Made by a program: the position numbers and the translations under genes
The notes under the pieces: model-generated
What the model was told of the DNA's origin: nothing
The model's input: only the letters and a program-made list of their open reading frames with translations
Databases searched by the model: none
Origin: Cristatella mucedo
Lineage: Eukaryota > Bryozoa > Phylactolaemata > Cristatellidae
Direction of reading: 5' to 3'
DNA length: 64,000 nucleotides
Assembly: GCA_009760855.2 (NCBI GenBank)
Contig: WPIO01000002.1
Coordinates: 4,053,001-4,117,000 of the forward strand
Shown: positions 2,771-56,248 of the stretch, in pieces
Numbering within the stretch: the first letter of the stretch is position 1
How the letters are laid out: every line of letters starts with the position of its first letter

Positions 2771-4306
<1,536 letters not shown>

Positions 4307-4429
4307 TATAAGCTTGTCTTGGAGAATATGATCACTAACATGGAACTATTCAGATAAAGCATTCATTGAAAAATCCAAACCTCAGAAAATCTACTCTTCC
4401 TGCGTTTTTTCTGCTTCTTCATTCTAGGT

Positions 4430-9432: not shown

Positions 9433-10788
9433 TCACAGGGAACCATTAAATGCTGTCCTAAATAGGTGTGTTTTCAAGTTCCCTTTAAATGTGGTCAGGT
9501 CAGGGGATGTTCTGATGCAGGTCGGGAGGGAGTTCCAGGCTTTGGGAGCATATGAACTAAATGCATGGTCTCCAAAGGATTTAAGGTTTGTATGAGGTAT
9601 TTCTAGACTGTTGGATTCCGAAAAGTGGGTGGTACGATGCTTGGCCTGATGGGGTAGTGTATCTGAAAGATAGGCTGGAGCCATAGAATGAAGGGACCTA
9701 AAAGTGAGCGACAAAACCTTGAAGTCAATCCGTTGCTTGACTGGTAGCCAGTGCAGGTCAGGGAGAAGTGGAGTAATGTGGCAACTGCAACGCTCACGAC
9801 AGATAAGCCTAGCTGCTGAGTTTTGCACCAGCTGCAATCGCCTGATCGCACATGCTGGTAGGCCAGTAAGCAGTGAGTTTCAGAAGTCGAGACAGGATGT
9901 CACGAATGCGTGGACCAACTTGGACGTGATATCTTTATCTTAACAAGCCCGAATTTCGGCAATGTTATGGAGCTGAAAATAGGCGGATTTGACTGTGGAG
10001 CTGATATGGTCGTCTAACGAAAGGTCGCTTTGGAATATGACACCTACATTTCGAGCTGATTCAACTGGAGATATGCTGGCAGAGCCAATTTTGAGAGTCA
10101 GCCTTTCCAATCTCTGGATCACATCGGGTTTGCCCATAACTAGTAAGTTAGTTTTATCATCGTTTAGTTTTAGAAAATTTGCTGCCATCCTTGTGCGGAT
10201 GTCATGAATGCATGCAGCCAGTGAGTTTAGAGAATTTGAGGTGCTCGAAGGCTGAGAGGGATCAAAGCAAAGGTACAACTGAGTGGCATCCGCATAGAAG
10301 TGAAAGCCAAGATTGTGCTTGGCAATCACATCAGCAAGAGGCAGAGTATAAACCGTGAAAAGAATCGAACCTAGCACTGAGCCCTGAGGTACTCCATATT
10401 TCAGAGGTACTTCAGATGATCTTTGTCCATTCACGTCAATACTCTGGAGTCTCCCACTGAGATAGGACCTGAACCATTGCAGAGCAGTGCCAGTGATGCC
10501 CAGGCGAGATGAGAGGCGCTCTAGAAGGACCTTGTGATCGATGGTATCAAAAGCTGCCGAAAGATCAAGCAAAACAAGCAGAGACACTCTACCCATGTCT
10601 GCATTCCTAAGTAGGTCGTTGTATACCCTAAGCAATACTGACTCTATGGATAGATTAGCTCTAAAGCCAGACAGGAACTTACTAGCAAGGTGTGAGGTTT
10701 CGATATACGAGTTCAGCTGGTCCGCCACGACCCCTTCGAGTGTATTTGATAGGAACGGTAGAAGGGAAACTGGGCGGTAGTTGCTCAA
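9433..10788 (-). pseudogene. LINE ORF2 part 2: reverse transcriptase and C-terminal domain, with two nonsense codons
   Basis: In one frame, 10788-9943 is the RT palm/fingers, and 9837-9433 is the C-terminal domain conserved in L2/CR1-type elements. The two pieces are split by TAA (9940-9942) and TGA (9880-9882), where the sister copy at 15523 has TTA and TGT. The catalytic second Asp of the RT active-site box is Ala. The protein could not function. Confidence 0.85.
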
Positions 10789-10829
10789 GTTCTTTTGGTC
10801 AAGTGTAGCTTTCTTGAGAAGTGGCCTGA

Positions 10830-12407
10830 CTACAGCCTTTTGAAAGGTGCTGGGACATGACCTGAGGCTAATGACATTTTTATTATGTCAGTTGTGCATT
10901 GCAGCAGCAGATCAATGCAACGTAGGAGCAGGACAGTGGGAATAGGGTCCAGAGGACTTGTTGTCTTCTTTGATTGAGATACGAACTTTAGGACTAGATC
11001 ACTAGTGACCTGCTTAAATGCAGACATTGAGGTGCAGCCAGGAACCGAGGAACAGCATTCTAGTGGGGAGGTTGTCATCGCAGGGATGGATTCCCTGATC
11101 TTGTCTATCTTCTGCACAAAGAATCGAGAGAAGCGATCGGCTAGATGAATATAAGGATCATCAGGTATGGAGCTAATCTGGGAATGGTTGAGGAGAGGGT
11201 TTATTGTCGACATCAGCATTTTTGGATTGTGCATCTGTGATTGAACAATGTTTTTACAAAAACTAGACTTAGCCTTTGCTAGGATCGATTGGTACGACCT
11301 ACAGTAGTCTTCATATGCCTGTCGATGGACAGTTAGTCCAGATCTTTTGTATGCTTTTTCAAGCTTCCGTTCAGTAGACTTGGATAGTTTAATGTCTGCG
11401 GTAAACCATAGGCCGTCTGGGCGGGGGCGCACAGTATGCTTTGTCAGAGGGGAAAACTCTTCTAGCGTGTCAGGTGGTGTCGGGTTGAAGCTATCTACCA
11501 ATGATGACAGATCGGAGTGAGGATTGACCAGCAGAGGTGAAGCAGATATTCTCACACGGACAGCATCGATTTCAAGGGTCTTGAGGTTTCGCGATTCACA
11601 TGTTATTTTAGAGGAGAATGTGGGCACACACTGTAGATTGAATGAGATCTGCATGTGGTCAGATAAGCAGGATTTGGTAATAATTGGTGATGACAAATTG
11701 CAGTTATATGAGAAAATCTGGTCGAGTGTGTGACCCTTGATGTGGGTAGGGCCATGCACATGAGCCACAAGAGACAATGACTCAGTCAATGCACGAAATT
11801 CGGTGCTGAAAGCGTCAGATAAGTTATCAAAGTGAATGTTGAAATCACCCATTACGAGGAAGGATCGATTTCTTGCACAAAGAATCGAAATGAGATTGGA
11901 GAAATCTGAGATAAAGAAGGATTTGGTACCTGGTGAGCGATAGACTACTGCCGCTATCGGTAGCTTGTTTTCGGGTGAGATTAAGTCAATTGATTCGAAA
12001 GACTGCTTCGAGGGTACAGCAAATGGCTTGAAGTTGAATTTCGAGCGCAAGACAATAGCAACTCCACCTCCAGTTTTGATTGATCTAGGGGTGTGAAAGA
12101 ACAAGAAGCAAGATGGAGTTGCGTCTTTAATTGTCGGACAGTTTATCGATTTCAGCCAAGTTTTAGTTAGGGCGAGCAGGTCGATACCATTTTCAGAAAT
12201 AAGGTCGCTTATTACTAGAGGTTTATTGCACATTGAGTGATGATTCCAAAGGCAAGCGTTAAGTCTGGCCGATGGGGTTACAACAGGCTTGATTACCACT
12301 AAGTTTGAGGAATTTACAGTGAAGCATGTGGGAGAGCGTGCTGAGTGGTTCGAGACAATGCTAGGAATACCGAACGAGCTGGTACTCAGCTTGCAGGTTC
12401 CGCCCAA
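10830..12407 (-). pseudogene. LINE ORF2 part 1: endonuclease and start of RT
   Basis: A 525-codon open frame ends at a frameshift. It covers the endonuclease domain (about residues 60-260 of this piece) and the linker up to VPAPFKRL. No ATG is needed at 12407: the frame continues upstream without a stop to the element boundary near 12530. The other L2 copy at 34740-37485 has five A bases where this one has four, which pinpoints the deletion. Confidence 0.85.
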
Positions 12408-12898
12408 CGAGCTGCGTCTGAGCTGGCGGTTCCGGCTACCCCGGCGGCTACTGGGTGCTTTTCTTTTGTTAATGCATAGTTCATGAATCTTAGCAACAAC
12501 ATTAATATCTAGGAATGCATTTGATATGCGATGACAGCACAGGTTTTAAAAGTTTTACGACGTCTCTTTAAACATTGGAATAAACTAGTACAGCAACAAC
12601 AGTCATTGCTCTGTTAATAGGACTCAGCTATACTTTTGCTTTTAGTGTTCTCATCGCTCTGCTCCCCCATCGACTCTTTACACCCCTCTCTAGAGGACAC
12701 ATTGAGCACCTTTTTAGGACACCTTAATTACTCACTAGATACGACAAAACCCTATAAATGCATCGGTACAGCCAGCTGGTAGCTCGTGACCTTTGCAGAG
12801 AGTCTTGATATCCTGTTACAGAACAGCCCTTTGCCAAAGAGCCTTTTGGTGTCCACGTTTAAGTCTTTATGTAGCCTATGGAGGTCGGAACCATCACC

Positions 12899-13290
12899 GT
12901 CAACCTTAAATCCTTTGGAGACCGTGCATTTAATTCGTATGCTCCCAAAGCCTGGAACTCCCTCCCGACCTGCATCAGAACATCCTATGACCTGACCACA
13001 TTTAAAAGGAACTTCAAAACGCTCCTGTTTAGGACAGCATTTAGTGGGTCCCTGTGATTCGTCCTTCACGTGCTTATGTGTGCTGGCACTGTGCATGCTG
13101 CCACTAACCACATTTTCATGCTGATCCTGTGCATGTCACCCCTAACCATGTTATTCATTTTGTTTGTTTTTCAAGCATGATTTTACTTACCATTCAATTG
13201 CATTTCCCTTTGCAGCAAATGTAAAGCGCCTAGAAAGAGATTAGGTTCTCTGAGGGCGCTTTATCAAGTACTTTATTATTATAATTATTA
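12899..13290 (+). mobile_element. L2 LINE, 3' fragment
   Basis: This fragment begins within the C-terminal domain (frame reading KSFGDRAFNSYAPKAWNSLP-like) and ends in the stem-loop and an ATT-rich tail. Flanking sequence on both sides aligns with unit D around 20050, which lacks it, so it inserted after the duplication. It is 5'-truncated. Confidence 0.88.
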
Positions 13291-39644: not shown

Positions 39645-40185
39645 AAGGTTTTGTTTAAGGTTTTGTCGCTCACTTTTAGGTCCCTTCATTCTATGGCTCC
39701 AGCCTATCTCTCCGACATACTCCCCCATCAGGCCAAGCATCGTATCACCCGCTTTTCGGAATCCAACAGTCTAGAAATACCTCGTACAAACCTTAAATCC
39801 TTTGGAGACCGTGCATTTAGTTCGTACGCTCCCAAAGCCTGGAACTCTCTCCCGACCTGCGTCAGAACATCCCCTGACCTGACCACATTTAAAAGGAACT
39901 TGAAAACACACCTATTTAGGACAGCACTTAGTGGGTCTCTGTGATTCGTCCTTCACGTGCTTATGCGTGCTGACACTGTGCATGCTGCCACTAACCACAT
40001 TTGCATGCTGACCCTGTGCATGTCACCCCTAACCATGTTATTCATTTTGTTTATTTGTTAAGCATGATTTTACTTACCATTTAATTGCATTTCCCTTTGC
40101 AGCAAATGTAAAGCGCCTAGAAAGAGATTAAGTTCTCTGAGGGCGCTTTATCAAGTACATTAATATTATTATTATTATAATTATA
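39645..40185 (+). mobile_element. L2 LINE, young 3' fragment
   Basis: The last part of the C-terminal domain is an uninterrupted 97-codon frame from about 39651 (FKVLSLTFRSLHSMAPAYLS... to FRTALSGSL), followed by the untranslated end, stem-loop and ATT-rich tail. It interrupts the duplicated segment B relative to segment A near 5795. Its intact frame suggests a recent insertion. Confidence 0.92.
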
Positions 40186-40409: not shown

Positions 40410-41790
40410 TTATAAAAAGTAATAGTACATTTTATCGAGCTTACTCAGAGAACTCAATCTCTTTCTAGGTGCTTTACCGTTGCTGGAAATAAGCAGGATT
40501 TAATAGTTAGTGGCAGCTTGCTCAATAAACGACAAGAATAGCACGGTTAGGGGTAGCATGCATAGGGTCAGCATGGAAGTGTGGTTAGTGGCAGCATGCT
40601 ACGTCATCACACATAAGCACATAAAGGACGAATCATGGGGACCCACTGCATGCTGTTATAAATGGATAGGTTTTAGTTTCTTTTTAAATGGGGACAAGTA
40701 AGGAGATGTCGTGACGCAAGTCGGGGGTGAGTTCCAGGCTTTGGAAGCATAAGAACTGAATGCTAGGTCTCCATAGGATTTGAGGATTGTATGCGATATA
40801 GTTAAGAACTTAGATTCCAAACAGCAGGTGAATCGACGCTTAGCCTGGTGGAACAGAAGATCTGATTGATAGGCTAGAGGCAAAAAATAAAGGGATGTGG
40901 AAGTCAATTGACAAAACCTCGAAATCAATGCCTTCCTTTAGTGGGAGCCAGTGCAGGTAGGCGAGAATCGGTCTGATGTGGCAACAGCAGTGCTCGCGAC
41001 AGACAAGCCTAGCTGATGAGTTTTGCTGCCGCAGTAAGCACCTGACTGGGCAGTCAGGTAGGTCAGCAAGCAGTGAGTTACAGATGCAAAGACAGGATGT
41101 CACAAATGCGTGTGCTAATTTAGATGCCGTATCCCAGTCAAAACAAACCCGAGTTTTAGCAATCTTATATAGTTGCAAGTAGTCAGACTTGACTGCGGAG
41201 CTGATGTGGTCGTTGAATTAAAGATCACTTTGGAAAATGACACCTAGGTTTTGTGCATATTTAAAAGGAGATGCTCTGGCAGAGCCAATATATAGCGTTA
41301 GGATTTGCATTTTCTTAATCGCACTTGGTTTTCCCATAACCAGTAAGTTGGTTTTATCATCATTCAGTTAAAGAAAACTTGAGGCCATCCATGTGCGGAT
41401 GTCATCAATGCATAAAGAAAGGGTGTTGGGAGAATTCGACTTGCTGGAGGGCTGGGAGGGACCAAAGCAAGGGTATAACTTAATGTCATTCGCATAAAAG
41501 TGAAAATCTACATTGTGCCTGGCAATCACATCGGCAAGAGCGAGAGTATAAGCCGTGAAAAGAACTGGACTAAGCGCAGAGCCCTGCTCTACCCCATATT
41601 GTAGGGGTTCCTCTGATGATCTTTGTCTATTCACATCAACACTCTTGAGTATCCCACTAAGATAGGATTTGAACATTTGCAGAGCAGTGCCAGTGATGCG
41701 CAGGCTACATGAGAAACGCTCAAGAAGGACTAACTGGTCTGTTCTACCAAAAGCTGCCGAAAGATCAAGGAAAACAGGCACAACAATTAT
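40410..41790 (-). mobile_element. L2 LINE, RT and 3' part
   Basis: The minus strand reads VFLDLSAAFGRTDQLVLLER, GVEQGSALSPVLFTAYT, HFYANDIKLYPCFG (YADD changed to YAND) and then the C-terminal domain with breaks. The 3' tail is at the left (about 40425-40490). It is absent from segment A near 6030 and so is a later insertion. Confidence 0.88.
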
Positions 41791-42200
41791 ACTCAACATG
41801 TGTCTGCAATCTATACTTATATGATGCAAATTCAGTGCATATAGCAACTAAAGAGAGGCTTCCAGCTCCAAGATTTTGGTACCAACGCATTGAAAGCCTG
41901 ATCTCTAAAGTGATCTCAATTTAGTACGTATGTCAACATTTGAGAACAAGTCACTGCACTTAATTGGCCGTCCTACGCATTGAATAGAATACCTGTTATC
42001 TCGGTTATTTTAGACTCAATTTATGACGTCAAACATGTAAATCAGTTCATTAAAGAAAGTACCTTTCAGTTGCTAATTGGAATTTACTGACAGCACAGAG
42101 CCAGTTATAGCTATTTGTTTAATGAGACCACAAAACTAGCAAGCCCCAGTTCATCTGAAGCAGCAATCCAGGGTGATACCCGGGTCTAGGTATTTTAAAA

Positions 42201-44315: not shown

Positions 44316-44354
44316 GAGGCATGTGAAAAGAGCTAGATAGAATATATATATACA

Positions 44355-44607
44355 TATATATGTACATGTGTGTGTGTTGTGTGTGTGTGCGTGTGTGTGC
44401 GTGTGTGTGTTGTGTGCGTGTGTGTGTGCGTGTGTGCGTGTGCGTGTGCGTGTGCGTGTGTGCGTGTTCGCGTGTGTGTTGTGCGCGTGTGTGTGTGCGT
44501 GTGCGTGTGCGTGTGCGTGCGTGTGCGTGTGCGTGTGCGCGTGCGCGTGCGCGTGCGCGCGCGCGTGCGTGTGTGCGTGTGTGTGTGCGCGCGTGCGTGT
44601 GCAGTTG
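44355..44607. repeat. Compound (TG)n/(CG)n microsatellite, Z-DNA prone
   Basis: About 250 bases are almost purely alternating purine-pyrimidine: TGTG and CGTG units grade into GCGCGCGC near 44540-44570. The several long open frames on both strands are artefacts of the dinucleotide repeat. It lies about 0.8 kb upstream of exon 1. Confidence 0.95.
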
Positions 44608-44689
44608 AACCTCTGGTATTTGTCAACTAGCCTTGCAGACATATTCATCATGAGCTAAAGTGGTCTAATGGTGCTCTATGTGAAGAAGA

Positions 44690-45405
44690 ATACTGTTGGG
44701 GGCTAGCTAGCAAGGCGGAAGGATATGTCGAACCATCGCCCGGAACTTGGAACCTGTAGCCGAGGAGAAAGCTGAAGCGAGGGCCGTGCCGGCTGTCGCT
44801 CTTGCTCTCGAACCCCTTTGAATCGAGCCGGCACCAGTCAGTGGGAAAGACTTCGAGCTTCGTGTGCGATGAGCAACCGGTATTGCTTGTAAGACCGGCT
44901 GCGGCTTTTTGTTCTGTCCGATTAGGACGCGTCTGCATTCCGATTAATCAAATAGTAGAGCCCTGTGCCCTAGAGCGGTGCAGTAAATCACATGGCGTAT
45001 GCATACAACAAATGCAACGGTCCAAGGAAAGCGGTAAATGCAGCTGACCACCGATATATCAGTCGACAGGCATTGTTTCTAAAGCTTCGATCGTGGGCGT
45101 GTCGTACGTGTACGACAGACACACCGCCCAAAGGAAAGCCTAATATGCAGCTATCCACTAGTAAATCGATAGGCAGGCATTGTTACTGGAGCTCGGATCC
45201 CGGGTTTCAGCCGACATTTAAGTTCAGAGCCACTGCTTTGTGCCTAACAGCTGCTAAGCAAACACGTCTCACGAGCTCAATTGTTCTTGGACAAGAGCGA
45301 CGTGAAGGATGCGGAAAATAGACCAGCTTGAAAACCGAATGGCTACAAAAGGAGCTAGGTGCATGCTTCGGCGTCGCACTGACCCGGATATTGCCATGAT
45401 CCTTT
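44690..45405 (+). promoter_or_regulatory. GC-rich leader/promoter region of the coiled-coil gene
   Basis: About 700 bases immediately before exon 1 are markedly richer in G+C and CpG than the sequence around them, like a promoter plus 5' UTR. I see no convincing TATA box. An imperfect direct repeat of about 55 bases (45032-45091 and 45140-45199, both containing aggcattgttactgg or a close variant) lies inside. Short open frames on both strands here look like composition effects. Confidence 0.4.
45032..45199. repeat. Imperfect direct repeat, two copies about 107 bases apart
   Basis: The two copies share atgcagct, then cagt/gatag, then aggcattgtt and a purine-rich end. They lie 200-370 bases upstream of the gene's ATG, so they could be duplicated regulatory sequence. 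No binding motif is recognised with confidence. Confidence 0.45.
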
Positions 45406-45828
45406 ATGGCCACCATAGACGCTCGGCAGGCTGCAGCCGAACGTAGTGCGAACGCTCTGTCGACCAAACCGGAGTCCGGCAGCTTATACATGCCGGAGAT
45501 GCCGGCCGACAGCCGCCGCTCATTCAGCTCCAAGGTGTTCTGGCTGACGGCATTGGCAGTCGTCGGAATAGCCTGCTACTTGGTGGTCTCCAATCGAAGA
45601 GAAATGATAGCGAACTCGGACAGAGTGGAGGCACGCCTGAGATCTGTGCAAGCCGAGAGCGACGAGGTGCAGGCGAAGCTAGGCAGCTTAGCTAACGAGT
45701 TCACCAAGCTGAAAGAACTGAACTCTCAGCTCAGTGGAACCATCGCAGACTGCAATATCGCAGCAGCCAAGCTACGTGCCTCACAGGCTGAAGCCGAGGG
45801 AAAGGCGGCCACTTGTGCAGACCAAAAG
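45406..45828 (+). CDS. Exon 1 of the coiled-coil membrane protein gene
   Basis: This exon encodes residues 1-141: the N-tail, the membrane helix and most of the coiled coil. It ends AAAAG|gtgagg, a strong splice donor, after codon 141. The ATG at 45406 has G at +4 but T at -3. A second ATG 10 bases upstream (45396) is out of frame and has G at -3; it opens a short reading frame that could dampen translation. If intron 1 is retained the frame runs on to a stop near 46047, giving about 213 residues with an unrelated, non-coiled tail. In-frame ATG codons at residues 29 and 32 are alternative starts. The exon is clearly more GC-rich than the sequence around it. Confidence 0.72.
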
Positions 45829-48800
45829 GTGAGGCACGGCAGCCACACCACCACTTGCCCAGTTATGTTGGCTGGGTGGACTTGGGGGGCGGCCGGAGTG
45901 CGGTGGTTTGGGCTAATGTCAACAGTCAGCCGACGTCAATTTGAAGTCGTGCACAGCATTTTCTGCATGCCTTACCACCACACCAATCGTGGGAGCGTCA
46001 CGTGCTCAAATCGGCTGAACTTGCCCGTGCAGTCTCGGATTGTGTAGGCACGTGTCTAAGTCGACGTGTTTCAGGCTAGTTGAGCGATTTGGACCGATTA
46101 GTGAAACGGTCAGCGACTTTCCACGAGTCCTTCACCCAATTTCTTCTTAAGCTGTTCTACTTCAGAGTCACCCCTAGATACATAAATGTGTTCTGGATAT
46201 AAAATGTGCGTTGTGCCCTTAGAGAACTTAATCTCTATACAGTCGCTTTGCATATGCTGCAGTGGGTATGGCAGAAGCGCATAATGCGCTTCCGCCACTA
46301 TGTACATGAACCTGTTAAATTAGCTGACATCGAATTTAGTGTATGCAGTGCCCTTGGGGTAAGATACTGGAGTTTCTAATATCTCGCTATAACTTACTGG
46401 TACTATTGAATGCCCCTTGCTAACGATAGTAGCTCAAGATTCGTGGGAATTTTGCAATATTATGTCTTTCATCAACATTTGATAAGCGCTGAGAATGCTT
46501 TCAGAATGCATATCGCTGGGTCAGGAGTGATATCACTGGATCTATAAGGTTTCTTGTATAAAATATTTAGTTAATTATCCCATTGCAAATAATTCAGAAA
46601 CCCTGCTCAGAAGACGTCTCTGCTTAGCCGTGGGCAGCCAGGCTAGAACGCGGGCAGCGAAAACCTGCTTCAAAAACTGTTTTCCATATCTGACTCTGAA
46701 AAATGTTATGAGGCACGACGTCTGGTGCCATATATGAGCTTGCAGTCTTCTGTCGTCTCTCGGCTTCCCAAGATGAGCTGGGAATAATAATCGCGACCTA
46801 GCAAAACCTTTGTCAGCACAATCGTACATTAAAGCACTGTCTTCATGTAATAGCTGAGCTTCTCCTAGACCGCTGCTCACCTGTTTTTAGAAACTTCAAG
46901 CATCTGGTGGGCAACTGGAAGAAGCTAAGTGCATCAATTCCTACTTTAGGCAGCGAAAGAGAAAGAGGGAGACAGTGACAGACAGATAGAGTGAAGAGAG
47001 AGAGAGAGAAAGAGAGGAAGCCGATGTGTAGTGGAATTATTGAGAGGACCATACTGCGTTCATCCATCGATTTCCAAGGACGCAGCGACATATAGAATTT
47101 CCGAAGGCTCTCAGTTGCGAAAGTACGCTTGTAATTCTAACCAAAAATCGGTTTCCTAACAATGTATTTGCCGGTTAGAGTTGAATCGAGCAAATAATTA
47201 CTCCAAAGACGTTTCATTATTATTAACCATCGTTCATTGGATTAACTGAGGGATTTTACTCCAAATACCCAACTAGGATTAATAATGAGGTTCTTAATCA
47301 TTAATAAAAACGACGCATAAGCATTTATTTTTTAAATCAACATTACAAGCGGGCGGAAGAATGCATTTTTGTATGGCATATTACTTTTGAACCAATACTG
47401 GTGGGGAAGTATGCCTCGAACGACTAATAACTCTCTGTAACACCCACCTGAGGCCCAGATCACCAACCTGCTGAAGTACTGCTAATATTAAAGGAAAAGC
47501 AATGAGTAACTTTTTTTAGAGTATGTGGACTTTTCACTCGTGGTTGGGTATGCCTTTATTGTGATTTAAGACTGTTAGTGATGGTCGTCTAAATGAGGCC
47601 ACCAACTCGATCACAGCTGTGCAAGGCCATGTCCTAAACCCCGCATGCAACCCGTAGAAGACATTTCTTAAGCCAGAATATAATGCCGCTGCGAGTGCCG
47701 TGGTAAATACTTTCATAGTAACACAAATCGATAGATTATTGTTTCGTCAGTCACCAACCAAAATGAGTTTACTAAGATGGCTGAGCCTAAGAACCCGACC
47801 GTCCTTGCGTGCTTTTAGTACTGCAGTTGTTAGTTGGTTCGGTTAGGGTTCAGTGGTTAGCAAGTCGGAGAGCCGGAATATTCAACTTGTACCGACGACA
47901 GAGAAGTGTCATCACCACCCATTGGTCAGCTGAAGCAGGCAAGCGACTAGTCATAGTTGCCTATGCAGACTAGCTACGTAAGACCTATTAAGGCAGTAAC
48001 AAGACAGCACATCCTCATAAGTTTTAAAATGCAGTTCCTTATTTGCGACAAGCATTAAACTTGCTAATAATAATAATAACATTAATGCACATGATAAATT
48101 GCCCTAAGAGAACTCAATCTCTCTCTAGGAGTTTTACATTTGCTGAATAGTTGCACATTCCGGATCACTGCAATTAGTGGGTCCCTTTGATTCGTCCTAT
48201 GTGGTTGTGCTTGCTCACACTGTGCATATTGCAGCTAACAATATTTGTATGCTGATCCTACGCATGCCAACCCCTAAAAATGTTATTCATGTTGTTTATT
48301 CAGTATGCTACTACTAACCATTCGATCGTGCTTCATTTGCAGCAAACTTAAATTGCTTTGAGAGAGATTAAGTTCCCTGAGGGTGCAATATCGAATGTAT
48401 TATTACCATTATCATGTCTGCTACTTGTACGCCGGTTTCTTGCAGATGAAAAAATTGTCAAGTCATATTGAATATTCGGATATCAGACTGTGACCCTACA
48501 TTTCATGCTACAAATTATGCACGAGCCGCGAATCGGTCAGCTGGTAAGAAAACAAATCCTAGGAAGACCATGACCAGGCCATACTTTCCAAGTTAAATCA
48601 CCATAGCATATTAGAAGTACATGACTTCAAAGAGTAAACCAAATCATATCCCTGTATCTCATTTTTGAAGAGGAACTTCCCCTGACCTGACCACATTTAA
48701 AGGGAACTTGAAAACACGCCTATTTAGGACAGCATTTAGTGGGTCTCTGTGATTCGTCCTTCACGTGCTTATGCGTGCTGACACTGTGCATGCTGCCACT

Positions 48801-51749
48801 AACCACATTTGCATGCTGACCCTGTGCATGTCACCCCTAACCATGTTACTCATTTTGTTTATTTGTTAAGCATGATTTTACTTACCATTTAATTGCATTT
48901 CACTTTGCAGCAAATTTAAAGCGCTTAGAAAGAGATTAAGTTGTCTGAGGGCGCTTTATCAAGTCCATTAGTATTATTATTATTATTATTAAACTGACAC
49001 TGGTGGTTGCACCAAAAATGTATAATCAATTCATCCCATTGGAGCCTGGACTTCATTTGCTCTCACCAACGTTCACCGTGGAGACACTAACGAGTATCTC
49101 TCGTTAACTACCTTGCAAGGTTAAATAATAATTCAATAATAATTCACTTGATAAAGCGCCCTCAGAGAACTTAATCTCTCTCTAGGCGCTTTACATTTGC
49201 TGCAAAGTGAGATAAAAAGAGCTTCGGGCTCAGCATTTAATCGACGAAATATGCTCAACAATTTTTACGTAACCTAAGCATCTTGACTATAGGATACAGT
49301 GTGAGACTGAGTCTGTTCAACGTCATGGACGTGAAGTCTTAGCTCATATTTCGCACTCTATTGTGTTCCTATGTCCATTTTATGATACCAGCTTGAATGT
49401 GAAAATTTTTTTCAGGCTCAGATCGAAAACGAAAAGGGAAATATCGTTAAACAGGAAGAATCGTGCAGAGGTATGTGCCTCTGTCTGTAGATTGGTCTTG
49501 GGAAACTAATTTAAGTGATACAAAATTTAGTAGCTTATTTTCGCGGACAAGAAGATTACAAACACTGCCCTGCTGTTCAACGAGGGAGAATTTAGAACGA
49601 TACATCCTGCGAAGTTAATTGTTTTTCTTCCTTCTCGAAACTTGGTGGTTATTTAAACTGAATCTCTGGGTTCACAGAATTCTTTATTTATTTGCTTCTT
49701 CCCAGCCATATTTTGGGGTTCCTGATTTAAACAATAACGACAATAGTTTTCGAGAGATTTTTTTCTACTAAATCGTTGTTCTTGGTGTGGGTCACCAGAA
49801 TCGTTGACAGACACCTGTATATAGGTTTTCCTATCATGCCATAATGAATACAGAATTTCTTTAATTAGTGGTCATTTTAACATCCATGAATTTATTTTAG
49901 CATGATCTGGTTGCACTTTTAAATAGCTCAAAAAAGCACTGTGCTATTGGTAGTAGCTCGATCATAACAACCCATCTGTTATAAGATTGAGGAAAACTTT
50001 TGTGTTCCATGTTTAAGTCATTATTTTATAAACTAATCATTAGGTTAATTTTTTTTAAGTTTATGAATACATATTTCAACACGGAATAGCGAAACACAAT
50101 CTGATATCTCCACAGAGGCTGGGAGCTCAGCCATTATGAATTTAAACTTTTCTGCTGCAGTACTTTCTTATGCTATATCTTGATATGGCTAAACAATAGC
50201 TTATGTTTTTGCATGTACGATAAATAAAACATATTAAAAATTGATCAGAAGATAAATTTTGTTTAATACATGTTTGATGCTTTTGCTTTCGATTTTAACC
50301 ACGCTGTAACTATAGCAAATACTCACTTTGATTTAATGATAACCTAGATTATATTGCGAAGGCTAAACTAATGAATTAATTTCTGAATACAGTAACTAAT
50401 TGCAGTATGTGAAATATTTACATATAATACAAGGATACATTAGGGAAATTCTTTCAAGTCCCATTATTATTACCATTAATCTTAAGTAATGTTTATGTAA
50501 AACTAGTCCACATCCCAGCCGTATGTGTTACATAAGGTATTCTATTCTAACGATCCCAATTTATGACTTCAAACGTTTCATAATACATTATGCGTGACGA
50601 AATTGGCTGCAGAGCAGGAGTCAGGAAATAGGCGTAACTAATTCAAACTCTGTAAAAATGAAAATATTTGGGTAATGAGAGATTAAAATGCAAAAACTAT
50701 AGCGAAAGAATCAAACTCATTCGCCTAATAGTCTTGCCCCTATTTTTAAAATATCTGGAGAGTATTTCTGGATTTATAAAAATTTAGGAAAATCTCGACG
50801 ATTTCGTAAAACGACCTAATTAAAGATGCTATTTTTGACTCATTTTGAAATTAGAAGGTAATTTAATGCACTAAAAATAGGCTGTGCACACTACCTAATG
50901 TATTGATTACAAGAATACCTGGAAAAAGTGGAACTCTAATGCAGTTCAAGTGGTCCCCTGAGCCCTTTTGGCAATTAACTTAGGCGATAATTCTAAATTC
51001 TACAAGAAATACTAACCAGCTGCTGAATGAGTCTATACAGGCTCCAAGCAAAAACGTCCATATCTCACACATGAATCTAAAGGACACAAAATAAAGTAGT
51101 GTTCTATGACGTAACTTATAATACGGTTCAACGAAGCTCGATTCCTGAACTTATCATGAAAATGCATAAACTTGAGAGAGACCATCTTAAGAGCCTCGTA
51201 TAAGCTTGTTGGATTTTGATTAAATTTTATGGTGCGATTGCTGCGGCAGTTCCCATTTATTCACAGTTCCTACTAGCATGCATGTGATCTCTCAGTAAGT
51301 GAATTCTCGTGTGTTTCATCAACGAAACTAAGTAGATAATTATAGTTAGTTTAAACTCTTTCCATATTTCCGTTTGAAGCCACTCCTTAATGAAAATAGC
51401 TAACTGCATATCATGGACGAGCAAGGTATGCCTATTTCTTTCACTCAGAGTAAGGGTACCTATTTAACGATAGCATAAATATGATCTGTATATCTAAAAA
51501 GGAAAACACCCATGAACCACTTTTTCACGAAGCAGTCTGTTTTCAAAGGCGAAGTTGGTCCACATTAAGTAAATTGGGCCTTTTTGGAAATTGATGCATC
51601 TTCTCTTAGCTGGTTTAGCTAGACCGAAAAGTCCTTAATCCGGTTAGCTATCACTTGATGCTTTTATTATCTGCCAAGCCCTTCGAGTTCGCTGTGGGTT
51701 ACACATCGGGCTAAATTCCTCGTTTGAAAAAATTTTGTAATCTCACGGC

Positions 51750-51787
<38 letters not shown>

Positions 51788-52434
51788 AATTAATAATAGT
51801 GATATGCTAATAATATAGCTCCTCAGAGAACTTAATCTTTTATAGGCACTTCACATTTGCTGCAAAGAAAGCACAATCGCATTTTTACTGATCCCTCTAG
51901 CTGGCTAGCTAAAAGGTCAGTGAGTTACTGGAAAGCCAAGTGTAGGAAATATATATTGTAATTGAGCGATAGAGGTTAAAGTAGTAATACTGCAAGACTG
52001 TATTGCTACTCAAAGTGAGCTCTCATCGAAAGGTACTGAGTTACAGTCTGAGGCAGAGTATGAGCAAAACTGACTGCATATTGAACTAATGCAAGTGATA
52101 AAAAACTGCCTAAATAAGTCTTTCGATGTCACCATGCTGAATAGATTCAAGTTTAACGTCAAATGTTACTGTCTTAAAATTTGTTTTTGCTCCTCAATGA
52201 TATAAACAGTAAGATTTGCTATACTTTCAAAGGTTATACAATTTCTTTTTTGCTTATGAAAAAATTCCAAGGAATGCCCTATGAGATCGACCACAGGTCA
52301 ACATCCTATATTGGGTCTATACTATATCTTGGTTTTCGATACCTATTCGAGAATGCGAATGCGTGCCTAAAAATTCAGAAAATGAAAACACGATCGCAAG
52401 TAATATCTAAGCCATTAGAATGTGTAATATATAC

Positions 52435-52474
<40 letters not shown>

Positions 52475-54494
52475 ATAATAATAATAATAATATAAAAATG
52501 TATTAATATGCAAGTTAACGTAAATAGTTGGAAATCATTAACATAAAAAGCAACCACTTTAAGCTTTACACTAATTATGAAAGTCTGAGTACGATTTCCT
52601 CTAGTGTTACTAGTGAGGCACATTGCGAAATCATATTGCTTCAGGGATTGCAATGGTTGATCAAAAAGCCTAAAAAGTTCAGTCATAATTTTTTTTTGTT
52701 GAAAGAGCAATGATGGCTCGTTTTTGATGCGCGGATGCAGAACATAATCTTTACTCTGCCCTACAAAGCCCTTTCACGGTTAGCTCGTTCGTACATGACT
52801 AAACTGCTTTACCAGTTTTAGCCTCCCGTACCGTCACGTTCTCTTTGTTCTCCGAAGCTTTTAATCTGCAGACTCAAGACTGTGAAGCTCAACGGCAAAA
52901 TTCTCTGGCAAAGGACTTTTGCTCTGCTGCTGCCAACTATAGCACATTCGTTGCAGCCTTTTTACCCAACTTCCTTGATTTTCAAACCTTTGACTTCCAT
53001 TTTGACTCAGTTTTTTTTCTCAAGTTAATTTTGAATTAGAAGGTGTTAGTTGGCTACCATGTAGGCATTGAAAGTCTCTTAGCAGTGCACTGATGAAAAA
53101 CTTTTAAATGGAACATTTTCATTTTTACTTGGAAGCTATGTGAAGTTACAAATGGACATAAGCAAATTTGCGCAAGCTCACACACACACACACACACACA
53201 CGATGATGACGGAACGTAGCAGCAGAATATAGAGGTTTTAGATACAGTTTTATTTTTTAATTTACACATAGTGGCTTAGCTCTATCGTTCACTGCCGACT
53301 TGCAATAACCAAGTCTCAAAAATCTGCTGCCATTGCAAAATGCAACATAATGACCTAGACTTAGCCACTAGCACTGCTTGTTTGCATCGCCTAAATTACG
53401 ACTGATTAAGGTCATCACTTTAGAAGTGCTATGCCGCTTCATTTTCCATGAACACTCGCATAGCCTGACGGCATTTCGTATCCCTGAGACGGCTTCAGAT
53501 ATTTTTGTGAAATTTATTTAATCCTTTCTGGTTCTTATCTAGACAGCTGAAATGACTAGAAGTAAATCGAATCTAAAAGCCTTACTTATGATTCACTGAT
53601 TGACAGGGGCTTATTCATACATTTTTACGCCACGCATGAAGTTGGTGGTTTGAAATGTCAATAATTGTCATGACTGCAAATAAGTTGTTAAAACGCTTTC
53701 GTTTAGGGGCTTACCTCTTATGCATACTTAATCTCGAATTTATTGTTACATTACACGATTAAATGAGTGCTGGAGAGACTTCAAAACTTTACGGTGAAAG
53801 AACAAGCACCTGAGGCAACCTAAGGATGTTATTTACAGAGCCAATAGAGTTATGACATGTTAATGCTTCAGCTCCATAAATAATGCTGCCAAAACGCTTC
53901 AGACAGCACAAAGTGTCATGTTTTTAAGAAGAATCGACGTGCACGCTTCATGGCCGCTGCAAATTTGAAAGCAAAATATTACACCGTGAAAAATGGCTGC
54001 AAGAGATTGTTACGGACTGTCTTCAGCCTGATCAATACTTTCTCAAGGCCTGACCTCTGAAGAAATAATTTAGAGATCGAGCTTGCACGAAGTATGATGC
54101 TAGCCTCTCTAATTTTTTATTAGAGCCATGGAAAGCCCTTAACGCTAATACGTTGCATTACTACTTGTAGCGGGTCATGAAAGCTTGACCAAAGAACTGG
54201 TTGCCTTAAAAGCAGAGCTGGCCAAGATAAAAGCAGTCACTGAGTAAGTATATGAAAACGCCAGCATGCAGGGACAAAATACTTGAAGAAAACGCTGTCA
54301 GCGCCCAAGAAAAAGAATATGGAGAGAGGGTCCTTAAGGCTGTGCTCGGCGAATTTTTCCAGCCTATTATTACGCCGATGCTATACGCCGATGCTATACA
54401 CCGATGATATACAGCCAATGATTTTTCTTTTAGGCAGCCACCCAGCAATCAACTGGCGGATGGCGGAAAGCCTGCTGTTTCTGGGCATCGCTAA
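45406..54494 (+). CDS. Single-pass (type II-like) membrane protein with coiled coil, four-exon gene model
   Basis: Four exons join to 203 codons: 45406-45828 (ends phase 0), 49416-49470 (phase 0 to 1), 54171-54243 (phase 1 to 2) and 54434-54494 (stop TAA 54492-54494). Every intron has GT at its start and AG at its end, and the phases match. Residues 1-43 are a polar, probably cytosolic tail ending in a basic RRSFSSK patch. Residues about 44-62 are one hydrophobic helix (starts VFWLTALAVVG). Residues about 70-184 are Ala/Glu/Lys/Leu-rich with heptad-like spacing, typical of a coiled coil. The last 20 residues are Pro/Gly/Ser/Asn-rich and likely disordered. I see no N-glycosylation sequon and no enzyme motif. 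The layout resembles Golgi type II coiled-coil proteins of the GOLM1/CASC4 kind, but that is topology, not proven homology. The introns (3.6, 4.7 and 0.2 kb) contain L2 tails. Further exons could be missing. Confidence 0.68.
46200..46290 (-). mobile_element. Short L2-like 3' tail in intron 1
   Basis: The block gcccttagagaacttaatct, the intervening tctatacagtcgctttgc and gctgcag match the antisense L2 tail. It is diverged and lacks a clear ATT run. Confidence 0.55.
46300..47839. other. Intron 1 of the coiled-coil gene, no element recognised
   Basis: Antisense frames at 46575-46880 and 46843-47091 carry no motif. A purine-rich run (about 46960-47010) is the only simple sequence. Confidence 0.5.
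47840..48010 (+). mobile_element. Possible tRNA-derived SINE in intron 1
   Basis: gggttcagtggttagcaagt looks like an A box. A B box is poorly preserved, and the body (gtcatcaccacc; ctagctacgtaagacctatt) resembles the bodies at 690 and 61090. Confidence 0.4.
48065..48160 (-). mobile_element. Short L2 3' tail (antisense) in intron 1
   Basis: (TAA)n, then the antisense stem-loop and gttttacatttgctgaa. It is followed within about 15 bases by a plus-strand L2 end, making an inverted pair. Confidence 0.75.
48170..48415 (+). mobile_element. L2 3' end (sense) in intron 1
   Basis: It begins at the block agtgggtccctttgattcgt just after the LINE stop codon region and runs to an altered stem-loop (aaattgc...gcaatat, still pairable) and attattaccatt. 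Confidence 0.8.
48670..48990 (+). mobile_element. L2 3' end, young, in intron 1
   Basis: The end of the C-terminal domain (cctgacctgaccacatttaa, frame to FRTAFSGSL) is followed by the untranslated end, stem-loop and (ATT)n at 48970-48990. Very similar to the copy at 39645-40185. Confidence 0.9.
49130..49225 (-). mobile_element. Short L2 3' tail, young, in intron 1
   Basis: About 75 bases nearly identical to the family consensus in antisense (cttgataaagcgccctcaga, then the loop and gcgctttacatttgctgc). It ends abruptly after gcaaagtgag. Confidence 0.82.
49416..49470 (+). CDS. Exon 2 of the coiled-coil membrane protein gene
   Basis: A 55-base exon lies between a pyrimidine-rich acceptor (tttttttcag) and the donor AGAG|gtatgt. 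It adds AQIENEKGNIVKQEESCR and one base of the next codon. The charged, helical composition continues the coiled coil of exon 1, and its start phase 0 fits exon 1 exactly. A short L2 3' tail in antisense (49130-49225) sits about 190 bases upstream in intron 1. Confidence 0.62.
49471..51752. other. Intron 2 of the coiled-coil gene, first part, nothing recognised
   Basis: Strongly AT-rich with stops in every frame and no repeats matching elsewhere in the window. Confidence 0.5.
51753..51784. repeat. (TA)n microsatellite in intron 2
   Basis: Short TA run directly preceding an L2 tail. Confidence 0.9.
51785..51895 (-). mobile_element. Short L2 3' tail in intron 2
   Basis: AT-rich start, then agctcctcagagaacttaat, a loop and cacttcacatttgctgcaaa, the antisense L2 end. 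It follows a (TA)n microsatellite directly. Confidence 0.7.
52432..52500. repeat. (TA)n then (ATA)n microsatellite in intron 2
   Basis: TA dinucleotides followed by ataataataata. The ATA part could be a leftover LINE tail, but no stem-loop is attached. Confidence 0.85.
52501..54170. other. Intron 2 of the coiled-coil gene, last part
   Basis: Contains the (CA)n tract and short chance frames; otherwise nothing recognised up to the exon 3 acceptor. Confidence 0.45.
53177..53202. repeat. (CA)n microsatellite in intron 2
   Basis: About 24 bases of CA dinucleotides. Confidence 0.92.
54171..54243 (+). CDS. Exon 3 of the coiled-coil membrane protein gene
   Basis: A 73-base exon lies between the acceptor ctacttgtag and the donor TGA|gtaagt, which is close to consensus. 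Read with one base from exon 2 it encodes AGHESLTKELVALKAELAKI followed by KAVT and two bases of the next codon. Leucines recur at coiled-coil spacing. It enters in phase 1 and leaves in phase 2, matching both neighbours. Confidence 0.62.
54370..54420 (+). repeat. Short tandem repeat before exon 4
   Basis: About three and a half copies of a unit near 13-14 bases (gccgatgctatac with drift) directly upstream of the exon 4 pyrimidine tract. Confidence 0.75.
54434..54494 (+). CDS. Exon 4 (terminal coding exon) of the coiled-coil membrane protein gene
   Basis: The acceptor is atttttcttttag. The first base completes a Glu codon, then QPPSNQLADGGKPAVSGHR and TAA follow. The tail is polar and disorder-prone. 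A short tandem repeat (about 54370-54420) lies directly before the pyrimidine tract. No AATAAA is close behind, so the 3' UTR either runs far or the real end lies in the downstream alternative exon. Confidence 0.5.
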
Positions 54495-54783: not shown

Positions 54784-55271
54784 TGATTATGTCGTAGTCT
54801 TGCGGCTACTTGTGAGAAAAGTGCATCGTTCTACTTACTTGTTCATGAGTTCACCTTAAAGCCCGATAACAAGCTTTATCGTGGGATTAATGAGAATTCT
54901 GCAATTCGAGCGCTGCATTTTCACATGTATACCTGCATTTATCACGCTTTTACACTCAATCCATGTGAACCTGTAGTCACCTAGGTCATCTCGCTATGCG
55001 CTGTTACAAGGAATTATTCAAACCTAGCCGCTAGAGGTGTGAGTTACAGCAAGTGGCACGATATTTCAATTTTAAAATAACTTAAAGCCACAGAAAAGAT
55101 GGCTGCACTCTTGCCATGGCCTAACACTTAATTGTATTGAATACCACAAAAGTCTTCGGCCAAAGACTTGTTCATAATCTGATGTTTGGCCAAGCTTAAA
55201 TGATAAGACAGGGGAAAGAGAGAAAGATTTTTCCTGTCTTACCATTAAAATACCTTCATGTTTTGTTACAG

Positions 55272-56242: not shown

Positions 56243-56248
56243 AATAAA
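56243..56248 (+). terminator. Candidate poly(A) signal of the coiled-coil gene
   Basis: AATAAA is followed by a GT/T-rich stretch (ttgtcttgtatttc). I noticed no other AATAAA between exon 4 and this point, and it lies 0.63 kb past the alternative last exon. That favours a transcript running through 55272-55650. Confidence 0.35.

What the first reader, a model, noticed from the sequence alone, without database searches (positions are those of the whole stretch)
45406..54494. A four-exon gene for a small coiled-coil membrane protein, three of its exons very short
Only exon 1 is visible as a long ORF. Exons of 55, 73 and 61 coding bases were found by their splice sites, and each start/end phase (0, 0-1, 1-2, 2-stop) fits the next. 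The joined protein keeps a continuous coiled-coil pattern across the exon borders. Chance agreement of three phases plus composition is unlikely. The protein family is not recognised, so this may be a lineage-specific secretory-pathway protein.
Basis: partly seen in the sequence, partly recalled or inferred. Interest (0 to 1): 0.72.

Follow-up and report, generated by a model that had tools for sequence, protein, structure and literature searches.

The report
Single-copy gene for coiled-coil membrane protein
The stretch very probably holds an ordinary spliced animal gene for a small membrane-anchored protein whose long coiled coil runs unbroken across exon borders, resembling in build (not provably in ancestry) known disulfide-linked membrane stalk proteins; its family and function are unknown.

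Summary
The four exons lie as stated, with GT-AG borders and fitting phases (203 aa). Phase agreement alone is weak: 37 candidates, exon 3 included, match exon 3's splice score. Better evidence supports exons 1-3. One heptad register, V74 to I179, crosses both borders without a skip, with cysteines 116, 137 and 158 at 'd', 21 residues apart. In that register exon 2 ranks first of 8152 candidates, and exon 3 (with its own shorter variant) first of 8647, on contrast plus helix propensity. Host codon usage makes the proposed frame best of six in 4 of 4 exons, marginally for exon 4. No second copy was found in the 572-Mb host assembly. The C-terminus is uncertain: exon 4 has a rival acceptor 4 nt away, and unspliced exon 3 stops at once. 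The start is uncertain too. No family is recognised: the best Pfam match is under its cut-off and hardly better than shuffles reach. Best reading: a single-pass, probably type II protein forming a disulfide-linked parallel dimer, built like PLVAP, tetherin or GOLPH2; orientation, dimer and role are inferred.

The parts
45406..45828 (+). Exon 1: N-terminal tail (43 aa), transmembrane helix (about residues 44-62), first half of the coiled coil, Cys116 and Cys137; donor AAG|gtgagg, phase 0
   Evidence: codon score best frame of six, 22.4 bits; no second copy found in the host genome
49416..49470 (+). Exon 2 (55 nt, AQIENEKGNIVKQEESCR): continues the same register, Cys158; donor GAG|gtatgt. A rival, higher-scoring acceptor at 49422 would remove 2 residues and break the register
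   Evidence: (first of 8152 on contrast plus helix)
54171..54243 (+). Exon 3 (73 nt, AGHESLTKELVALKAELAKIKAVT): end of the coil; donor TGA|gtaagt; a TAA stop follows in frame if unspliced
   Evidence: (first, with its own shorter variant, of 8647 on contrast plus helix); weak on splice score alone
54434..54494 (+). Exon 4, proposed terminal coding exon (EQPPSNQLADGGKPAVSGHR stop); rival acceptor 54438 gives DHPAINWRMAESLLFLGIAKID stop
   Evidence: weak codon support, 0.6 bits
45829..49415 (+). Intron 1, with repeat fragments at about 48067-48415, 48673-48993 and 49120-49213 and a short one at 46215-46261
49471..54170 (+). Intron 2, with a short copy of the same repeat at about 51779-51874
44500..46000 (.). 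GC-rich stretch around exon 1 (GC 0.51-0.57 per 500 nt; CpG observed/expected 1.24, 1.06, 0.73 against 0.74 for the window), possibly the promoter region
56243..56248 (+). First AATAAA downstream of the gene, possible polyadenylation signal (an ATTAAA lies at 55244)

Best explanation
A real, spliced protein-coding gene of the host animal, with no second copy found. Its product has a 43-residue tail, one uncleaved transmembrane helix (about residues 44-62) and a continuous coiled coil of 16 heptads from V74 (roughly 16-17 nm if straight, from a recalled helix rise), then a short tail that is not settled. Most likely it is a type II signal-anchor protein whose coil faces the lumen or outside and forms a parallel homodimer locked by up to three interchain disulfides at Cys116, Cys137 and Cys158. 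It would act as a rigid membrane stalk or tether in the secretory pathway or at the cell surface. Shown here: exon coordinates, frame, register, cysteine positions, no second copy found. Inferred: splicing, orientation, dimer, disulfides, place and role.
For: Phases and borders. One unbroken register with V,V,V,L,L,L,C,L,A,C,I,I,C,L,L,I at 'd' over both exon borders. Top rank in that register among 8152 and 8647 open candidates on contrast plus helix. Codon frame best of six in 4 of 4 exons, by a test that works on host exons. The four exons are the four best of 8 hits of the joined protein in the host genome, in order; the next has E 2.26. No exon matches elsewhere in the window over 40 nt or more. 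One strong hydrophobic window. PLVAP and GOLPH2 show that type II single-span proteins with cysteines in the coiled-coil part form disulfide-linked dimers (passages read).
Against: No RNA evidence. Exon 3 is unremarkable on splice score. Exon 4 is weak and ambiguous. Upstream ATGs in another frame overlap the proposed start. Charge over 15 residues is +1 on each side of the transmembrane helix, so orientation rests on the cysteines. Eight of 16 'a' positions are polar or charged (S,N,Q,K,K,E,H,T), so the core is imperfect. No relative was found, so selection cannot be tested.
Confidence: 0.62

Rival explanations
1. The gene is real but the coil faces the cytosol: an N-anchored protein (kinectin- or p180-like topology, recalled) that binds cytoskeletal or vesicle partners; its cysteines stay reduced.
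For: Charges flanking the membrane helix are equal (+1 and +1); no N-glycosylation sequon in the protein.
Against: The three coil cysteines sit at 'd', exactly three heptads apart, as expected for interchain disulfides in an oxidising compartment; PLVAP's interchain disulfides include Cys178 and Cys199, also 21 apart.
Confidence: 0.2
2. Exons 1-3 are right but the C-terminus differs: exon 3 is terminal by intron retention (184 aa), or exon 4 starts at 54438 (205 aa), or the last exon lies elsewhere. (Compatible with the best explanation apart from the tail.)
For: The TAA in exon 3's donor ends the frame at once; acceptor 54438 scores higher (5.69) than 54434 (3.48); exon 4's codon score is only 0.6 bits.
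Against: The donor carries gtaagt, and the same TGA|GTAAGT was the best site picked near a host chaperonin exon; the 54438 frame scores lower (-1.0) than the 54434 frame (0.6).
Confidence: 0.35
3. Only exon 1 is a gene fragment or chance ORF; exons 2-4 are chance splice-like segments.
For: 37 candidates, exon 3 included, match exon 3 on splice score; blind ranks are 9 and 76 of 961.
Against: Register and codon tests and the ordered, same-strand placement.
Confidence: 0.06
4. A true orthologue of GOLM1/GOLM2, tetherin/TMCC(aT)/PLVAP or another named family that has diverged beyond sequence recognition.
For: Similar architecture: tail, one membrane span, coiled coil with cysteines.
Against: No match to them among the Pfam and PDB hits shown; different cysteine spacing from GOLPH2; no sequon, not acidic (GOLPH2); no GPI-like C-terminus (tetherin).
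Confidence: 0.1

Closest known systems
PLVAP (PV-1), vertebrate diaphragm protein (PMC10083539, passages read, parts of the abstract among them)
   Same: Single-span type II protein; coiled-coil ectodomain segment is a parallel dimer; CC1 has five interchain disulfides at Cys142, 153, 178, 199 and 224, one neighbouring pair 21 residues apart as here.
   Different: Ectodomain about 390 aa against about 140 here; nine ectodomain cysteines against three; no PLVAP chain in the PDB hits; homology not settled.
GOLPH2/GOLM1 (GP73) (PMC3226628, passages read, part of the abstract among them)
   Same: Type II Golgi membrane protein; coiled-coil stem; disulfide-bonded dimer.
   Different: Two cysteines 11 apart (C159, C170) near the end of the stem, against three 21 apart; pI 4.9 and N-glycans, against pI 7.6, no sequon and a C-terminus of about 20 residues here.
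Tetherin (BST2) and TMCC(aT) (PMC10617486 and PMC6546079, passages read)
   Same: Cytoplasmic tail, membrane span, coiled-coil ectodomain; tetherin has three interchain disulfides; avian TMCC-S lacks the GPI anchor, as here.
   Different: Tetherin's C-terminal GPI or membrane anchor has no counterpart here; described in vertebrates; no tetherin chain in the PDB hits.

Membership tests
GOLM1/GOLM2 | Type II single-span protein with luminal coiled-coil stem | tested here: inconclusive
   One span and a coil are met; orientation not determined.
GOLM1/GOLM2 | Two conserved cysteines 11 residues apart at the end of the stem | tested here: not met
   Cysteines 116, 137 and 158, spacing 21 and 21; the feature is from passages on GOLPH2; for GOLM2 not checked.
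GOLM1/GOLM2 | Acidic, N-glycosylated protein (GOLPH2) | tested here: not met
   pI 7.64, no N-X-S/T; feature.
GOLM1/GOLM2 | Sequence similarity to the family | not testable with these tools
   No profile named for this family appeared among the Pfam hits shown (the best 25 of 41).
Tetherin (BST2) | C-terminal GPI anchor signal | tested here: not met
   C-terminal 20 residues hydrophilic, mean Kyte-Doolittle -1.26; the rival 22-residue end has a short hydrophobic patch with charges after it. Judged by hydropathy; no GPI predictor was run.
Tetherin (BST2) | Three disulfide-forming ectodomain cysteines in a dimeric coiled coil | tested here: inconclusive
   Three cysteines at 'd'; disulfides and dimer not shown.
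PLVAP | Sequence similarity in the coiled-coil segments | tested here: inconclusive
   No PLVAP chain among the 7 PDB sequences at E up to 5; that the PDB copy holds the PLVAP segment is inferred from the paper, not checked.
Pfam DUF7491 (PF24319) | Score over the curated cut-off | tested here: not met
   25.4 bits, cut-off 30. Among seven heptad-preserving shuffles the best match to any family is E 1.8e-5 (KASH_CCD) and to DUF7491 22.0 bits, E 1.9e-4. The real coil scores 25.8 bits, E 1.3e-5, so slightly above every shuffle: kinship is not supported but not excluded.

The most novel reading that the evidence does not exclude
An invertebrate protein family, not yet recognised, that independently reached the tetherin/PLVAP build: a membrane-anchored, disulfide-zippered parallel coiled-coil rod of 16 heptads with three cysteines three heptads apart. 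It would act as a cell-surface or Golgi tether, and the exon borders fall inside the coil without shifting the register.
Probability: 0.12. Interest if true: 0.55.

Novelty: new member of a known kind. Interest (0 to 1): 0.3.

Why it matters
Genes like this (one long exon, then exons of 55 and 73 nt kilobases apart, no recognised relative) are easily missed or truncated by annotation. The heptad register gives a way to support short exons from genomic DNA alone. If the disulfide-zippered dimer is real, it adds an invertebrate example of the membrane-stalk design used by PLVAP, tetherin and GOLPH2.

Tried and rejected
DUF7491 as the family: not supported. The match is under its cut-off, and of seven shuffles one reached E 1.8e-5 to KASH_CCD and one 4e-5 to Cep57 (seven of the eight shuffles made were given). 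Against this, the real coil (E 1.3e-5) is still slightly better than each shuffle, and the match needs both halves: exon 1's coil alone does not list DUF7491, exons 2-3 alone reach E 0.043. Other Pfam, NCBIfam and PDB hits shown look like coiled-coil background: the Pfam and NCBIfam ones are under their cut-offs, the PDB ones have E 0.071 or worse. No Rfam family in the window at gathering score. Exon 1 as a repeat or multi-copy element: no second copy found. Extra coiled-coil cassette exons: one search listed 18 coiled-coil-like candidates in any register; besides exons 2, 3 and a piece of exon 1, four score above exon 3's 5.1 on splice plus codon (13191-13229 minus, 2402-2446 plus, 40078-40116 minus, 46136-46173 minus), each only 12-15 codons and none inside the gene on its strand; I judged none convincing. 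The minus-strand ORF over exon 1 (45207-45575): no Pfam match at E 0.01, and the minus frames of exon 1 score lower in codon usage (best 10.5 against 22.4).

Changed criteria: a first ad hoc register test kept exon 2 (one of 3 of 7575), but exon 3 was not among its 5 of 8068 because of a hydropathy limit. I replaced it with the contrast test, in which plus-strand acceptors inside exon 1 were left out and at least three 'd' positions were asked of a hit. On contrast alone, exon 2 is one of 2 of 8152 and exon 3 one of 28 of 8647; the added helix criterion leaves 1 and 2 (the 2 are exon 3 and its shorter variant). The splice matrices are recalled human-like values, not trained here. The host splice sites are best-scoring sites near match ends, not verified borders. 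Loci L018, L029 and L036 were left out of the codon table (27 of 30 used).

A first pass at the chaperonin loci read minus-strand loci in the wrong orientation; one search replaces it. The structure job for exon 1 was accepted but not finished, so no model is used. Paper searches for DUF7491 and CLIMP-63 found no paper; those gave listings from which only PMC10617486, found too, was opened.

Full report
Setting. The window is bases 4053001-4117000 of contig C222 of a 572-Mb, 688-contig eukaryote assembly. The mitochondrial contig C688 reads sensibly, by eye, with ATA as Met and AAA as Lys (table 5). Its block nad1-trnP-nad6-cob-trnS-trnT-nad4L-nad4-trnH-nad5, with trnP and trnT opposite, was placed by eye; from recall, it fits a lophotrochozoan invertebrate.

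The observation. The exon 1 donor AAG|gtgagg lies in the top 0.03% of 6941 GTs on both strands of the window. Between 45.9 and 54.17 kb three open phase-0 candidates, exon 2 included, score as high as exon 2; two of them share its donor, and one of these, from acceptor 49422, scores higher. But 37 open phase-1 candidates between 49.5 and 64 kb, exon 3 included, score as high as exon 3. In a blind splice-plus-codon ranking of 961 candidates exon 2 is 9th and exon 3 is 76th.

What makes exons 1-3 convincing. From V74 a single heptad register runs 16 heptads without a skip; the 'd' residues, to I179, are V,V,V,L,L,L,C,L,A,C,I,I,C,L,L,I. Exon 2 supplies I144, I151 and C158; exon 3 supplies L165, L172 and I179. 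The three coil cysteines (116, 137, 158) are each at 'd' and 21 residues apart. Eight of the 16 'a' positions are polar or charged, so the core is not perfect. With exon 1's register fixed, I scored every open AG..GT segment of 40-109 nt on both strands of the window (plus-strand starts inside exon 1 left out). On contrast plus helix propensity, exon 2 is first of 8152 and exon 3, with its own shorter variant, first of 8647; on contrast alone they are among 2 and 28. An earlier ad hoc version of this test kept exon 2 but not exon 3 (see Tried and rejected).

Codon usage. A table from 27 exon matches of the host's chaperonin family (1891 codons counted; 3 of 30 loci left out) gives the proposed frame the best score of six in 4 of 4 exons: 22.4, 4.5, 4.2 and 0.6 bits. 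The last is weak: the next frame has 0.2, and 11.5% of random open segments do as well. The method picks the true frame in 27 of 27 whole host exons and 64 of 84 20-codon pieces in leave-one-out. Donor TGA|GTAAGT, as in exon 3, and TAG acceptors also appear among the best-scoring sites near host chaperonin exons.

Uncertain ends. Acceptor 54438, 4 nt past the proposed 54434, scores higher (5.69 against 3.48) and would give DHPAINWRMAESLLFLGIAKID; its codon score is lower (-1.0 against 0.6). If exon 3 is not spliced, the frame stops at the TAA inside its donor, giving 184 residues. Upstream, ATGs at 45309, 45339, 45363 and 45396 share one frame that overlaps the proposed start at 45406, so either the transcript starts just before 45406, the 5' leader is spliced, or translation starts elsewhere, for instance at ATG 45490. 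Codons 1-28 still have some coding support (4.0 bits, 2.7% of random segments); codons 29-66, the tail end and membrane span, have less (-1.4 bits, 12.9%).

Copy number and repeats. The joined protein gives 8 matches at E up to 10 in the host genome: its own four exons in order (E 1.3e-82 to 0.03), then four with E 2.26 or worse. The search scores only its best candidates, exon by exon, so a distant paralogue in short exons could be missed. No exon matches elsewhere in the window over 40 nt or more, while intron 1 carries several repeat fragments. One, 48673-48991, matches 9512-9194, just downstream (minus strand) of the endonuclease and reverse transcriptase frames at 9943-12542; I infer 3' ends of that LINE-type element.

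Family. No Pfam model passes its cut-off. The best, DUF7491 (25.4 bits against 30), is not specific enough: of seven heptad-preserving shuffles one reached E 1.8e-5 to KASH_CCD and one 4e-5 to Cep57, and DUF7491 itself was listed for two, at 1.9e-4 and 0.015. The real coil, at 1.3e-5, is only slightly better. PDB gives nothing better than E 0.071. No animal proteomes could be searched, so 'lineage-specific' is untested.

How it most likely works. One hydrophobic span (best 19-residue window from residue 44, mean 2.29) divides a 43-residue tail from the coil; flanking charge is +1 on each side and there is no sequon. Cysteines at 'd' three heptads apart suit a parallel dimer with interchain disulfides. 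[quoted passage not shown] I therefore favour a type II stalk or tether in the secretory pathway or at the cell surface. Orientation, disulfides and role are inference. A cytosol-facing coil is the main functional rival.

Verdict.

Noticed in passing
window 9943-12542 (-): A LINE-type retroelement with endonuclease (Exo_endo_phos, E 1e-7) and reverse transcriptase (RVT_1, E 3.6e-24) domains in two overlapping frames; repeat fragments like the stretch just downstream of it recur over the window, including intron 1 of the gene.
   Followed up: partly
window 41371-41847 (-): A weaker reverse transcriptase fragment (RVT_1, E 6.2e-6, below cut-off).
   Followed up: no
L018 (G000:C3:162547-164052, -): An uninterrupted GroEL-like frame of 549 aa (match GC 0.39, locus GC 0.35) in the host assembly, unlike the other chaperonin matches, mostly short pieces; possibly a bacterial symbiont or contaminant contig.
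   Followed up: no
L005, L008, L009 (G000:C688): The 21-kb mitochondrial contig repeats a stretch: the same ORFs recur at an offset of 2115 bases in L005 and again, on the other strand, in L008 and in part in L009; duplications or an assembly artefact.
   Followed up: no
window 4100-4310, 44330-44630, 51750-51782, 52430-52500: Simple-repeat arrays (TA- and CA/GT-type), seen in the ORF list and sequence.
   Followed up: no
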